64,000 nucleotides of DNA from Verrucomicrobiota bacterium (GTDB taxonomy: Bacteria > Verrucomicrobiota > Verrucomicrobiia > JABWAM01): contig JAHFSY010000005.1 of assembly GCA_023269615.1 (NCBI GenBank), positions 62,001-126,000 of the forward strand, in the 5' to 3' direction. Shown in pieces: positions 31,105-56,542 of this stretch. Every line of letters starts with the position of its first letter. Positions within the stretch are counted from its first letter, which is position 1. A model generated the notes under the pieces. It searched no databases. It saw only the letters and a list, made by a program, of their open reading frames with translations, and was not told the DNA's origin. The position numbers were made by a program, and so were the translations under genes.

Positions 31105-31803
31105 CTATTCGAATATTCCTGAAAGCGGGGTGCTTTCTGGGACGAGGAAAATGTAATCTCCGCTTTCCAGGATTTGCTTTCCATCCGGCGCGCCATCCTT
31201 GCCGCTGCAGTCGAACGTGGATCGCTTGAGATCGCGCTTGAGGATGTTGATGTGCCTTGGGTTTACATCCTTCGGAAGGCCGCCCTCCAGCTCGATCGCC
31301 TGCCAGAGCGTGATGGGTTCCTTGAAGATCCTCGGGTAAAGGGTTGCCGGGGGGCCGGACGCTGGCATTTCCGATTGAGTCACGACATGGGTTGCGGCGG
31401 CGGCCTTTTTCGGATCGTACTTTACGATCTTATAAGGGGAGGAGTGGATGGATGCCTCGATTTTCACTTCCTCGTACCCGATGATGCCGCGGTACATGTT
31501 CGCGAGATTGGTGCGCAGTCCGAGGAGCGTCAGGCCATCGGCCTTCACATACGAGCCGTCGGGCGTGGCCACATCGCCGATCTTTTGCACTGCTTCCAGG
31601 GAACCGATGGCGCGGTCGGGCTGTCGCAGCGTAATCTTGATCATGTCGCCCACATGGATCACGCGATCCGGTTCTGAGAGACGCGAGACGGTGTTGGTTT
31701 GCGCAAAGGCCACGATGGCCGATGCGAACAAAAGCACGAAAAAACGCGGAACGCGGAACGCGGAACGCGGAATTAAAGAAAGTAAACTGGACAGGACTCC
31801 CAT
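31105..31803 (-). CDS. Exported polysaccharide-export-like (SLBB-type) protein
   Basis: The 232-residue product from the ATG at 31803 has a signal segment (FFVLLFASAIVAFAQ) and then SEPDRVIHVGDMIKITLRQP. This resembles the start of Poly_export domains, in which LxPGDxLxI introduces a beta-grasp fold. The rest contains GDVATPDGSYVKADGLTLLGL, like an SLBB segment, and ILKRDLKRSTFDCSGKDG near the end. Such proteins form outer-membrane conduits for polysaccharides, but this one is short and lacks the usual lipobox, so the assignment is tentative. Codons just before the signal peptide (SAFRVPRF) are encoded by a GCGGAAC repeat. Confidence 0.6.
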   Translation of the reverse strand: MGVLSSLLSLIPRSAFRVPRFFVLLFASAIVAFAQTNTVSRLSEPDRVIHVGDMIKITLRQPDRAIGSLEAVQKIGDVATPDGSYVKADGLTLLGLRTNLANMYRGIIGYEEVKIEASIHSSPYKIVKYDPKKAAAATHVVTQSEMPASGPPATLYPRIFKEPITLWQAIELEGGLPKDVNPRHINILKRDLKRSTFDCSGKDGAPDGKQILESGDYIFLVPESTPLSGIFE

Positions 31804-31850
31804 AAGTATTCTCTCCCACCCCGCGTTCCGCGTTCCGCGTTCCGCGCTTC
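31744..31850. repeat. Inverted arrays of a 7-base GCGGAAC unit
   Basis: Three to four GCGGAAC units at about 31744-31770 face three to four inverted GTTCCGC units at about 31815-31846. The array overlaps the signal-peptide start region of the export-like gene, so it is partly coding. Confidence 0.75.
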
Positions 31851-53886: not shown

Positions 53887-53937
53887 TCCCCTAGTAGTGT
53901 TTAATAAATGAGTGGACCATTCCTCCGGTCCCACCAC

Positions 53938-54007
53938 GGCGCTTTCGGCGAAAGCGCCCTACCTTTGATTGGATTGCCGATGGTAGGGCGTGCTCGCCGA
54001 GCGCGCC
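53938..54007. repeat. Divergent REP pair A5
   Basis: An inverted unit with palindrome built on GGCGCTTTCG (53938-53962) and a direct unit with GGCGTGCTCG (53983-54007) stand back to back, unlike the face-to-face A1-A4. A broader inverted repeat containing AATGAGTGG lies outside them (about 53905-53925 and 54029-54048). The rest of the 53529-54084 gap has no gene. Confidence 0.75.
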
Positions 54008-54084
54008 GTCGGGTGGGAGGCATGGAACGGGAAACGACCACTCATTTGATGAACAGCACACTGGCTGATTCGCTCGTTGCCGCA

Positions 54085-54145
54085 ACCCAACGTTTTGTGA
54101 CGGACATCAGCCCGGAAGACACCCTGCTATTCCGGGGCGTTGGGA
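54085..54145 (-). other. attC-like site 5 (left end of the array)
   Basis: Outer boxes ACCCAACG (54085-54092) and CGTTGGGA (54138-54145) pair, and an inner stem CCCGGAA/TTCCGGGG (54111-54117 and 54130-54137) lies within. The last codons and stop of the 78-residue gene fall inside it. It lacks the tt/1-base asymmetry of sites 2 to 4. Confidence 0.6.
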
Positions 54146-54363
54146 TCAGGGCGTATGCCCTCTTTCACGATCCAAGGCAGGAGATGGCCTTTCATAGGCA
54201 CGATCCATAGCTCCCACACCTGGCCACACTCTGGACAGCGGTACCGGTCCGATACTCCTGGCGGCACAGGCCCCGTCACGCGCTGAACGTGCTCAAGGCC
54301 GGCGATGTGCTCGAGCGAGCAGTTCCCATACTCACCGCAGAGCTCAGCGCATTGGCAGGCCAT
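54127..54363 (-). CDS. Cassette protein, small Cys-rich protein of unknown function
   Basis: The 78-residue product has a cluster of cysteines at the start (CQCAELCGEYGNC) and a CPEC pair later with a Trp-rich stretch (QVWELWIVP), suggesting a small zinc-binding domain. The last 20 residues run into the attC-like site. I do not recognise the family. It is the last gene of the array in the leftward direction. Confidence 0.55.
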   Translation of the reverse strand: MACQCAELCGEYGNCSLEHIAGLEHVQRVTGPVPPGVSDRYRCPECGQVWELWIVPMKGHLLPWIVKEGIRPDPNAPE

Positions 54364-54405
54364 AAAACGTCAGCAGTCAGTCGCGCCGCTTGGCGGCGTT
54401 GACTG
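54362..54405 (-). other. attC-like site 4
   Basis: A hairpin with arms CAGTC and CGCCGC (54378-54389) and GCGGCG and GACTG (54393-54405) has 1 unpaired base on one side and tt on the other, as in sites 2 and 3. The box next to the following gene reads GTTTTAT on the minus strand; the expected complementary box for the cassette at 54377 was not found. Confidence 0.6.
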
Positions 54406-54886
54406 GACGAGCTTCAGCGCTCTTTTGTTTTTCAATTTCTTCTTTGACCTGTTTTATGGCTGCGGACAGGGGGGTGGAAACAAGTTGGATTGAGGCGCTG
54501 TCCTGAAACCACTCACAATCCTCTCCGGCTATAGGGCGAATGGATAAATGCCAATTTGATCCGACTAGAAAATCGCCATCATGCTTCAGAAACACCAACT
54601 GCTTTCCCTTCTGGAATCGGCACTGTGCGCAGACAATATTCTCCATGCCATAAATAGTGAGCGTCTTTTCGACACGGCCTTTAATAACCTCCACGAGCGT
54701 TGCCGAGATTCTCTGACGATACGTCCAATTCCCTCCTTTGGTCTCTGTGGGAGCAATTTCCGTGACGTCGACCACGGCGATCACGTCTGACATGCGAATC
54801 ATGTCGGGATAACGACGATATGCAGCTTTGCCGAAAGCAGATGTAGCCGCACTAACAAGAATGACCGCAAGTATAATGGATTTCAT
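54377..54886 (-). CDS. Cassette protein, secreted protein of unknown function
   Basis: The 169-residue product from the ATG at 54886 starts MKSIILAVILVSAATSAFG, a clear signal peptide. The mature part contains YPDMIRMSDVIAVVDVTE, VIKGRVEKTLTIYG and QFQKGKQLVFLKHDGDFLVG-like text near a CAQC pair. The CAQC and LVFLKH phrases echo the secreted protein at 26872, so both may share a fold with ligand-dependent binding. It is the second gene from the left in the array. The stop lies within attC-like site 4. Confidence 0.65.
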   Translation of the reverse strand: MKSIILAVILVSAATSAFGKAAYRRYPDMIRMSDVIAVVDVTEIAPTETKGGNWTYRQRISATLVEVIKGRVEKTLTIYGMENIVCAQCRFQKGKQLVFLKHDGDFLVGSNWHLSIRPIAGEDCEWFQDSASIQLVSTPLSAAIKQVKEEIEKQKSAEARPVNAAKRRD

Positions 54887-54892
54887 ATTGTC

Positions 54893-54984
54893 ACCGAACG
54901 TCCAAGGTGACTCACGGCTGGCCGTGCCGCGACTCCGCAGGAGGCGTGACGCGGGTAGCCGTTGAGTCCACCGCCTTGTTCGCA
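54893..54984 (-). other. attC-like site 3
   Basis: On the plus strand the site runs from box ACCGAAC (54893-54899) to box GTTCGCA (54978-54984). Between them an imperfect hairpin pairs GGTGACTC-a-CGGCT with AGCCG-tt-GAGTCCACC around a GC-rich centre. The GTTCGCA box is complementary to TGCGAAC at 55368, the start of the same cassette. Confidence 0.75.
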
Positions 54985-55361
54985 TTGTTGATTATTCTGT
55001 CGGCAAGTTGCGTAATCATGTCCTTGAGTTCCAATGGAAGCTGCGAGACTGAGTCCGCTTGATTCTCAATTATCCATTCCAAATCATTTGATTGGTCTGC
55101 GCCTCGTTCGAGGTTGCTGAAAACTATGCCGAGACAAGCCGCATATTCCCGCTCATGACCACTCTGTAACCAGTTCTTTCCGAGTTCGATGACTTCATAT
55201 GGATACCAATATCCCTTCGACTTAAAATCTACGACGCCGCCATTGGAGATGACGTCGTCCAATGCGGAGCGGTGTCGGTCCGCATCATTGCCGTAATCCA
55301 GGCTCGCAATGAAGTCCCGCTCTTCGTCTGTCAACGATTTCAGTAACCCGTCGAGGTTCAT
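54912..55361 (-). CDS. Cassette protein of unknown function
   Basis: The 149-residue product is acidic and mostly helical, with phrases DEERDFIASLDYGNDADRH and GKNWLQSGHEREYAACLGIVF. It is soluble with no signal peptide and I do not recognise a family. The final stretch (NKAVDSTATRVTPPAESRHG) lies inside attC-like site 3, so the 3' end of the gene is supplied by the recombination site, a common situation in cassettes. Confidence 0.65.
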   Translation of the reverse strand: MNLDGLLKSLTDEERDFIASLDYGNDADRHRSALDDVISNGGVVDFKSKGYWYPYEVIELGKNWLQSGHEREYAACLGIVFSNLERGADQSNDLEWIIENQADSVSQLPLELKDMITQLADRIINNANKAVDSTATRVTPPAESRHGQP

Positions 55362-55367
55362 TTGTTA

Positions 55368-55426
55368 TGCGAACGTGGCGCTCACTCGCGACCGCCCCGG
55401 TCGTTGAGTGCAGCACCGTGTTGGAT
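55368..55426 (-). other. attC-like site 2
   Basis: Box TGCGAAC (55368-55374) and box GTTGGAT (55420-55426) bound a hairpin. Its core CACTC-g-CGACCG pairs with CGGTCG-tt-GAGTG. GTTGGAT is complementary to ATCCAAC at 55739, the start of this cassette, and on the minus strand ATCCAAC fits the classical RYYYAAC box. Confidence 0.8.
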
Positions 55427-55714
55427 GTCTTGAACCAATTGACGCCTTTGAGCGAAGTTGTGACGCATGATGCGAATGCCTCCAATCGCTGCAAAAGGAG
55501 CAAAAATAATAAATGCCGTCTCGGTGCTTCCTGCGCATGCCAGCAATGTGATCGGGAAAGATGACAGGACTCCGATCAGCACGATCCAAACGCCCAATGT
55601 TTGAACTGAACAATTACAGGTGGGACACGTCAAGCGAGTCATAATCGCATAGCTTTTAAGACATGAGGAAGCCTGGAGACTTTTTCCGCACTGAGGGCAA
55701 AAGCATGTCTTCAT
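55382..55714 (-). CDS. Cassette protein, zinc-ribbon membrane protein of unknown function
   Basis: The 110-residue product starts MKTCFCPQCGKSL with a zinc ribbon (CPQC and CPTC pairs). Two membrane helices follow (about 41-60 and 67-83; WIVLIGVLSSFPITLLACAG). The combination suggests a small membrane protein with a cytoplasmic metal-binding head. It lies between attC-like sites 1 and 2. The stop and last codons (ALNDRGGRE) are part of site 2. Confidence 0.65.
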   Translation of the reverse strand: MKTCFCPQCGKSLQASSCLKSYAIMTRLTCPTCNCSVQTLGVWIVLIGVLSSFPITLLACAGSTETAFIIFAPFAAIGGIRIMRHNFAQRRQLVQDIQHGAALNDRGGRE

Positions 55715-55738
55715 GTTTTGAAGATCTCAAAAATCATC

Positions 55739-55798
55739 ATCCAACGTCACGGCTGAGTGGCGCGCTTCTGCACGTTCACTCCAGCCGTCTGGTTCGGC
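55739..55798 (-). other. attC-like site 1
   Basis: Boxes ATCCAAC (55739-55745) and GTTCGGC (55792-55798) bound a hairpin pairing CGGCTGAGTG (55750-55759) with CACT-C-CAGCCG (55777-55787), which has one unpaired base. GTTCGGC is complementary to GCCGAAC at 56236-56242, the start of the cassette at 55747. Confidence 0.75.
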
Positions 55799-56226
55799 TG
55801 CTTTGTCGTCAAAAGATAGTCGAAAATCAAATACGCCAGCCAATATGTGCTCACGACAGTACCAAAAGCCAATGACCAAATTACGGATAAGAAGACGTCG
55901 CGCTCGCCGAGAAGCAAGAAGATGGGAGTAAGGATGCAAAAAAACACGGGCCCGGTAAATGGAATCAGGACCCAACGAAAACCTCTTCGCCAACCGTTTT
56001 TCTCAAAGAGCCATCGTAAGGCAAAACCTGCAGGAACAGCGATGCACAGGAGGGAGAGCAGACTGCCGACTGCTGCAAAGACTGGAACCAGGAGCCAAGG
56101 TCCGCCGATCGGTTCGCCGTGAAAAGCGGAGCCAGCGATCAAGATCGCGCCCAATCCTGTAGAAGCAATCGCCGTCAGAAATGCCCAGGACGAGAGAAAT
56201 GAATAGGCAAACAGTCGTGGTTTCAT
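55747..56226 (-). CDS. Cassette protein, four-helix membrane protein of unknown function
   Basis: The 159-residue product has about four hydrophobic helices (for example LSSWAFLTAIASTGLGAILI, VPVFAAVGSLLSLLCIAVPA and VLIPFTGPVFFCILTPIFLL). No motif of a known transporter or enzyme is visible. It is the first gene of the array. It starts ten bases after the box GTTCGGC, as in integron cassettes where the gene begins close to the recombination point. The last codons overlap site 1. Confidence 0.65.
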   Translation of the reverse strand: MKPRLFAYSFLSSWAFLTAIASTGLGAILIAGSAFHGEPIGGPWLLVPVFAAVGSLLSLLCIAVPAGFALRWLFEKNGWRRGFRWVLIPFTGPVFFCILTPIFLLLGERDVFLSVIWSLAFGTVVSTYWLAYLIFDYLLTTKQPNQTAGVNVQKRATQP

Positions 56227-56542
56227 GTTTGTTTTGCCGAACGTTGTTTAGACAGAGTTTTCTCTGCCTATCCGGATAATTAAGAAAGCAGGGGAAACGG
56301 CTGTGACCGCCACCGGTCGTGGCGTGGTGTTCATGGGGGTCTGCCGGTTGGGGGTTTTGTTCATCGGAAGCGTTCCGTTTCAGTCACACAGCCGGGATAG
56401 GCGGAATTTTCTCTGCCTATCCGGGTATTTAAGAAAGCTGGCAGGGCGGAACGGACGGGAAGGATTGCGCCGGAGAACGGGGTGGGCGACACGATGGAGT
56501 TGTCAAATGAGACCATATACAGGAAACACTCGGAATAATTCA
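56227..56542. other. Gap upstream of the cassette array with repeated GGATAGGC hairpins
   Basis: No gene is seen. The phrase TTTTCTCTGCCTATCCGG occurs twice (56258-56275 and 56408-56425). Near 56253-56266 it forms a short CAGAG/CTCTG hairpin; near 56395-56424 GGATAGGC pairs with GCCTATCC. The 3' end carries the first cassette box GCCGAAC (56236-56242). An attI-like site or a promoter for the array may lie here. Confidence 0.5.

What the first reader, a model, noticed from the sequence alone, without database searches (positions are those of the whole stretch)
54085..56242. Integron-like cassette array (CALIN) with self-complementary boxes
Five small minus-strand genes are separated by hairpins. 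The 7-base box at the start of each of three successive cassettes is exactly complementary to the box in the cassette's own 3' hairpin (GCCGAAC/GTTCGGC, ATCCAAC/GTTGGAT, TGCGAAC/GTTCGCA, all seen in the sequence). Three hairpins also share the same 1-base versus tt asymmetry, as attC sites have extrahelical bases. Established knowledge: attC sites show R''/R' complementarity per cassette. Inference: this is an integrase-free cluster with unknown cargo (a four-helix membrane protein, a zinc-ribbon membrane protein, an acidic soluble protein, a secreted protein and a small Cys-rich protein).
Basis: partly seen in the sequence, partly recalled or inferred. Interest (0 to 1): 0.92.

Follow-up and report, generated by a model that had tools for sequence, protein, structure and literature searches.

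The report
Integrase-free integron gene-cassette array
A verrucomicrobial chromosome carries a short row of swappable gene cassettes with no recombinase gene beside it; the recombination sites are genuine, one cassette also heads into another array of the same genome, and a leader sequence shared by these two arrays marks where cassettes were inserted, so this is a good example of a known kind of element rather than a new one.

Summary
A covariance model trained on 59 attC sites from integrase-linked arrays, none from the window, ranks three of the five hairpins first in the 64-kb window (E 8.5e-9, 8.7e-8, 1.5e-5; next hit 1.6). All three R'' boxes complement their own cassette's start 7/7. 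The fourth hairpin is a decayed attC that lost its R'' AAC. The fifth is unsupported. No intI lies in the window, but the same genome has an intI array on contig C127; that intI carries an in-frame TGA. Further attC loci occur on C73, C49, C66, C28 and C22. Cassette 3's 5' end also follows a different cassette on C49, the shared sequence starting at the recombination point. A ~196-bp leader upstream of cassette 1 has exactly one other copy in the genome, also heading a cassette array and also ending at CTAAACAAC^GTT. I read it as an orphan attI-like site. Cassette-4 relatives sit between attC sites in other Verrucomicrobiota; its predicted fold resembles TIMP/NTR. Verdict: a real CALIN, new member of a known kind, probably frozen now.

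The parts
56240..56435 (-). Leader, attI-like: ends CTAAACAAC^GTT exactly where cassette 1 begins; holds two 44-nt direct repeats (56249-56292, 56398-56441)
   Evidence: 75.5-76% identical over 196 nt to C49:1512-1707, the only other copy in the genome, which also heads a cassette array; homology stops at GTT
55746..56242 (-). Cassette 1; ORF 56226-55747, 159 aa, predicted multi-span membrane protein
   Evidence: start GTTCGGC complements R'' GCCGAAC 7/7; membrane nature judged from the sequence
55739..55798 (-). attC1 (60 nt), one extrahelical base on the L'' side
   Evidence: R1 25.3 bits E 4.8e-4; R2 42.6 bits E 8.7e-8
55375..55745 (-). Cassette 2; ORF 55714-55382, 110 aa, Cys-rich N-terminus plus membrane segments
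   Evidence: start GTTGGAT complements R'' ATCCAAC 7/7; ~29-30% identical homologues inside attC arrays of G217
55368..55426 (-). attC2 (59 nt)
   Evidence: R2 32.8 bits E 1.5e-5; 33 nt at 94% identity to an attC of the intI-linked array at C127:907-939
54900..55374 (-). Cassette 3; ORF 55361-54912, 149 aa, predicted all-helical, no family match
   Evidence: start GTTCGCA complements R'' TGCGAAC 7/7; its first 118 nt plus the conserved AC are 100% identical to the end of contig C49 behind a different cassette
54893..54984 (-). attC3 (92 nt)
   Evidence: R2 46.9 bits E 8.5e-9, best in window
54369..54899 (-). Cassette 4; ORF 54886-54377, 169 aa, secreted, TIMP/NTR-like predicted fold
   Evidence: homologues between or beside attC sites in Luteolibacter, Haloferula, Pontiellaceae and other MAGs; fold
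54362..54421 (-). attC4, decayed: stem kept, R'' AAC lost
   Evidence: 86% identical over 49 nt to attC C49:1037-1096; R2 gives only a partial match, E 3.2
54127..54363 (-). Fifth gene, 78 aa, Cys-rich (C..C motif); 3' boundary near 54091-54085 unproven
   Evidence: ORF; no attC-model support for the hairpin 54160-54085
53898..54055 (.). MITE-like repeat abutting the 3' side of the array, not part of the integron
   Evidence: imperfect 26-nt terminal inverted repeats; sequence of this region recurs at least 8 times in the genome

Best explanation
This is a CALIN: a cluster of integron gene cassettes whose attC sites were made and moved by an integron integrase acting in trans, or formerly in cis. 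Cassettes are excised as circles through folded bottom-strand attC hairpins and reinserted at G^TT, which gives each cassette a start box complementary to its own 3' R'' box. Here the 5'-most insertion point is an attI-like core (CTAAACAAC^GTT) at the end of a ~196-nt leader that exists twice in the genome, each copy heading a different array. The cassettes belong to the same pool as the genome's intI-linked array on C127. The array is probably frozen or decaying now: the only strong intI match has an in-frame TGA and attC4 has lost R''. Shown here: attC anatomy, box complementarity, shared attC family, cassette 3's 5' end in two contexts, leader duplication, no local intI. Inferred: recombination mechanism, attI function of the leader, present inactivity.
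For: attC sites recognised by an independently trained model; covarying stem in the training set, 92% of cells paired against 28-37% when slid; 7/7 start/R'' complementarity; intI at 478 bits in the same genome; attC sites of the same family on C127, C49, C66 and C73; cassette 3's 5' end identical for 120 nt on C49 but preceded by another cassette, starting at the recombination point; leader in two copies only, both ending at GTT with different cassettes behind; cassette-4 and cassette-2 relatives in attC arrays of other genomes.
Against: The IntegronFinder or HattCI models could not be run; a home-made model replaced them, and the structural scanner that chose its training sites was mine. Two of the five hairpins are not intact attC sites. 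The two contexts of cassette 3 rest on a contig end in a fragmented assembly (131 contigs), so the second context could be a strain variant. The leader's attI role rests on two copies and a short core. The TGA in intI could be a sequencing or assembly error.
Confidence: 0.88

Rival explanations
1. Off-target origin: IntI from C127 inserted cassettes in trans at secondary chromosomal (attG-type) sites; there never was an intI here, and the leader is just a repeated chromosomal sequence that happens to be a good target. (A question of origin within the best explanation.)
For: No intI remnant near the array; ordinary genes on both sides, SUMF1-like and thiF; attC loci scattered over several contigs; PMC8618304 lists off-target insertion as a CALIN route.
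Against: The leader occurs in only two places and both are array heads, which is more than a random target would give; its end differs at one base from the functional core AAACAAAGTT of delta-attI1 (PMC12901181).
Confidence: 0.4
2. Relic origin: the locus and C49 are remnants of complete integrons, or of one duplicated integron head, that lost intI; the leader is their attI. (A question of origin within the best explanation.)
For: Two homologous heads, divergent cassettes, attI-like core; intI-linked G003 attI reads AAACAAAGTT.
Against: The leader does not resemble the attI beside the genome's own intI, and no intI fragment is left at either copy.
Confidence: 0.45
3. An ordinary five-gene operon with terminator hairpins between genes.
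For: All five genes lie on one strand, closely spaced.
Against: Hairpins fit attC anatomy including the AAC/GTT ends, spacers and extrahelical base; box identity is cassette-specific; homologues occur singly in other arrays; no synteny in the relatives examined.
Confidence: 0.02
4. The window array is part of the C127 integron, misplaced by assembly.
For: Fragmented assembly; cassette arrays break assemblies, as noted in PMC9024848; cassette 3's 5' end is shared with C49.
Against: The array is internal to a 156-kb contig with chromosomal genes on both sides, and its leader is distinct from the C127 attI.
Confidence: 0.07

Closest known systems
CALIN (cluster of attC sites lacking an integron integrase)
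   Same: At least two attC sites, small ORFs on one strand, no intI near; per-cassette box complementarity
   Different: Headed by a leader that is duplicated at another array in the genome; CALINs are not normally defined by such a head
Sedentary chromosomal integron, here the intI array on C127 of the same genome
   Same: Same attC family, unknown small cargo, 7/7 box complementarity
   Different: C127 has intI and its own, unrelated attI; the window has neither
attI sites, including delta-attI1 (core AAACAAAGTTRRRY, PMC12901181)
   Same: Leader ends AAACAACGTT at the insertion point, with upstream direct repeats
   Different: No adjacent intI; sequence unrelated to the host's own attI; activity untested
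attG secondary sites (Loot et al. 2024, cited in PMC12444791)
   Same: Would explain cassettes at chromosomal places away from intI
   Different: attG sites are reported as widely distributed and sequence-divergent; here the same 196-nt leader recurs at two heads
TIMP / agrin NtA (NTR, OB-fold) domains, for cassette 4
   Same: Predicted fold (Foldseek prob 1.00, TM 0.60-0.63 by target); secreted
   Different: About 11% identity, no Pfam match, E 1.5e-3 only; inhibitor function not shown

Membership tests
CALIN | At least two attC sites | tested here: met
   Three, E 8.5e-9 to 1.5e-5; threshold of two from PMC9024848
CALIN | No integron integrase gene near the cluster | tested here: met
   No intI match in the window or adjoining contig stretches
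CALIN | attC anatomy: R''/R' ending AAC/GTT, spacers, L''/L' stem with extrahelical base on the L'' side | tested here: met
   attC1-3; not met by hairpin 5, partly by hairpin 4
CALIN | R'' complementary to the start of its own cassette | tested here: met
   7/7 for three cassettes
CALIN | attC sites recognised by the IntegronFinder or HattCI models | not testable with these tools
   Those models are not held; own models R1 and R2 used
CALIN | Cassettes mobilisable by IntI | not testable with these tools
   Indirect support: cassette 3's 5' end in two contexts
Complete integron | intI adjacent to attI and the array | tested here: not met
   intI only on contig C127, with an in-frame TGA
attI site (leader) | Invariant sequence ending at G^TT with different cassettes behind it | tested here: met
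   Two copies, different first cassettes
attI site (leader) | Adjacent to a cognate intI | tested here: not met
   No intI near either copy; recognition by an IntI is not testable here
attG site | Cassette insertion into a chromosomal target shown by an empty site | tested here: inconclusive
   No relative with the leader in 384 class genomes, so no empty site to compare
TIMP/NTR domain (cassette 4) | Sequence-profile match | tested here: not met
   No Pfam or PDB sequence match
TIMP/NTR domain (cassette 4) | OB-like fold | tested here: met
   AlphaFold pLDDT 83, top hits NtA and TIMP; weak E-values

The most novel reading that the evidence does not exclude
The leader is a dispersed, integrase-free attI: the genome keeps several chromosomal landing platforms that one IntI encoded elsewhere fills in trans, so that a single integron is spread over the chromosome rather than confined to one array.
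Probability: 0.22. Interest if true: 0.62.

Novelty: new member of a known kind. Interest (0 to 1): 0.4.

Why it matters
CALINs are usually found as bare attC clusters whose origin (intI loss or off-target insertion) cannot be told. Here two arrays in one genome share a head that ends exactly at the recombination point and carry different cassettes, which makes the question testable. It also adds a phylum-level set of attC sites (28% of sampled genomes of the phylum carry intI) and a widely carried cassette gene with a TIMP-like predicted fold.

Tried and rejected
Rfam scan of the window: no match. MAFFT alignment of whole attC sites (A1) misaligned the right halves, so trimmed 50-nt cores (A2) were used to seed the model. 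A simple TAAAC..GTT motif search for attI near intI in relatives found nothing; attI ends were then read off from first-cassette boxes instead. A CTAA motif 5-7 nt before GTT at intI-less array heads was noticed but is post hoc and is not claimed. Cassette 3 in viral contigs: none. Leader pattern in genome contigs: none; leader in 384 genomes of the class: only this genome, plus two short chance-like matches of 32-35 nt. Defence-system library: none. Cassette 3 fold: low confidence (pLDDT 66), no useful match. The contig-end identity C127:1-120 / C73:1-120 was considered as an array join and rejected because the orientations do not continue one array. One call was malformed.

Full report
OBSERVATION. 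On the minus strand from 56242 to 54085 lie five small ORFs separated by hairpins. Read as attC sites, hairpins 1-3 have R''-spacer-L''-loop-L'-spacer-R' with spacers of 4-6 nt and one extrahelical base on the L'' side: attC1 55798-55739, attC2 55426-55368, attC3 54984-54893.

MORE THAN CHANCE. To test this without the published models, I fetched regions around intI genes of other genomes in the phylum and found sites with a structural scanner. In the clear arrays the sites fell only on one strand beside intI, for example 13 against 0 and 11 against 0. Twenty-five of them, none from this genome, aligned without gaps at 50 columns, and their stem covaries: 92% of cells paired against 28-37% when slid by 1-3 columns. 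Model R1 built from these ranks attC1 and attC2 first and second in the window, E 4.8e-4 and 0.12. R2, built from 59 sites including the C127 array of this genome but none of the window's, gives attC3 8.5e-9, attC1 8.7e-8 and attC2 1.5e-5; the next hit anywhere in 64 kb has E 1.6. Hairpin 4 is a decayed member: it aligns with attC C49:1096-1037 but its R'' AAC is gone. Hairpin 5 has no support.

THE GENOME. The window is C107:62001-126000 of a 4.48-Mb, 131-contig assembly. Its relatives identify it as Verrucomicrobiota: a 'same class' genome shows the same attC pattern beside cassette 4's homologue as Luteolibacter pohnpeiensis, class Verrucomicrobiia. An intI (478 bits to TIGR02249) sits on C127 beside nine attC sites. 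It keeps the tyrosine-recombinase catalytic residues but has an in-frame TGA near its N-terminus. Further attC loci lie on C73, C49 (two places), C66, C28 and C22. R'' complements its own cassette's start at 6/7 or better in 17 of 19 cassettes examined. 81 of 289 sampled genomes of the phylum have intI; integrons in Verrucomicrobiota are already on record (PMC8618304).

MOBILITY. Contig C49 ends with 120 nt identical to the start of cassette 3, and the identity begins at the conserved AC^GTT; the cassette in front is different. The 5' end of cassette 3 therefore has two neighbours, in one genome or in two strains of one population. None of the five genes is found beside the thiF and serA orthologues of relatives. 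A search of 388 genomes of the phylum with the five proteins found homologues of cassettes 2 and 4 only, each without the other four. Cassette 4's homologues lie between or directly beside attC sites in Luteolibacter pohnpeiensis, Haloferula luteola, a Pontiellaceae genome, a pond MAG and WAS_Bin_30, but no attC was found beside those in a Lentisphaerae and an Omnitrophota MAG.

THE HEAD. The 196 nt upstream of cassette 1 (56435-56240) are 75.5-76% identical to C49:1707-1512 and to nothing else in the genome. Both copies end CTAAACAAC^GTT; the next bases belong to different cassettes, each with its own complementary R'' (GTTCGGC/GCCGAAC and GTTATGC/GCATAAC). The core AAACAACGTT differs at one base from the functional delta-attI1 core AAACAAAGTT (PMC12901181), which the intI-linked array of a family member shows exactly (G003). 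I infer an orphan attI-like site. No intI remnant is near either copy, and the leader does not resemble the host's own attI. No sigma-70-like promoter was found on the array's strand, so how the cassettes are expressed is unknown.

CARGO. No family match above a curated cut-off for any of the five proteins. Cassette 4's predicted fold resembles agrin NtA and TIMP: fold-level only, weak E-values, no inhibitor activity shown. Cassette 3 is predicted all-helical with low confidence.

MECHANISM AND STATUS. Established knowledge: IntI excises cassettes as circles through folded attC bottom strands and inserts them at G^TT of attI or attC; CALINs may arise by off-target insertion, intI loss or rearrangement (PMC8618304). 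The evidence fits insertion at an attI-like leader, with intI now elsewhere and probably inactive. Relic and trans-insertion origins cannot be separated with the data held; the two confidences given to them among the rivals divide the best explanation rather than compete with it. Verdict: a real CALIN, new member of a known kind; the duplicated head is the part worth following.

Noticed in passing
G000:C127:3980-4918 (L009): Integron integrase with an in-frame TGA (about C127:4079-4081) and intact catalytic residues; its array runs to the contig end.
   Followed up: yes
window 53898-54055: MITE-like repeat with 26-nt imperfect terminal inverted repeats; sequence from this region recurs at least 8 times in the genome.
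   Followed up: partly
G000:C49:1-1707 (L097): Second integrase-free array with the same leader; its cassettes include a BamE-domain protein.
   Followed up: yes
L028:7137-7262: attC-like site (33.7 bits) about 110 nt upstream of the serA orthologue in relative G003, at a contig end.
   Followed up: partly
L009:1-120 and L098:1-120 (C127 and C73): Two cassette-array contigs end in the same 120 nt, in the same orientation; probably a shared repeat inserted in both.
   Followed up: no
L029:8560-9247: Sequence after the integron array of G003 looks like a group II intron end; not tested.
   Followed up: no
window 31739-31845: Short GCGGAAC tandem repeats facing inverted GTTCCGC repeats.
   Followed up: no
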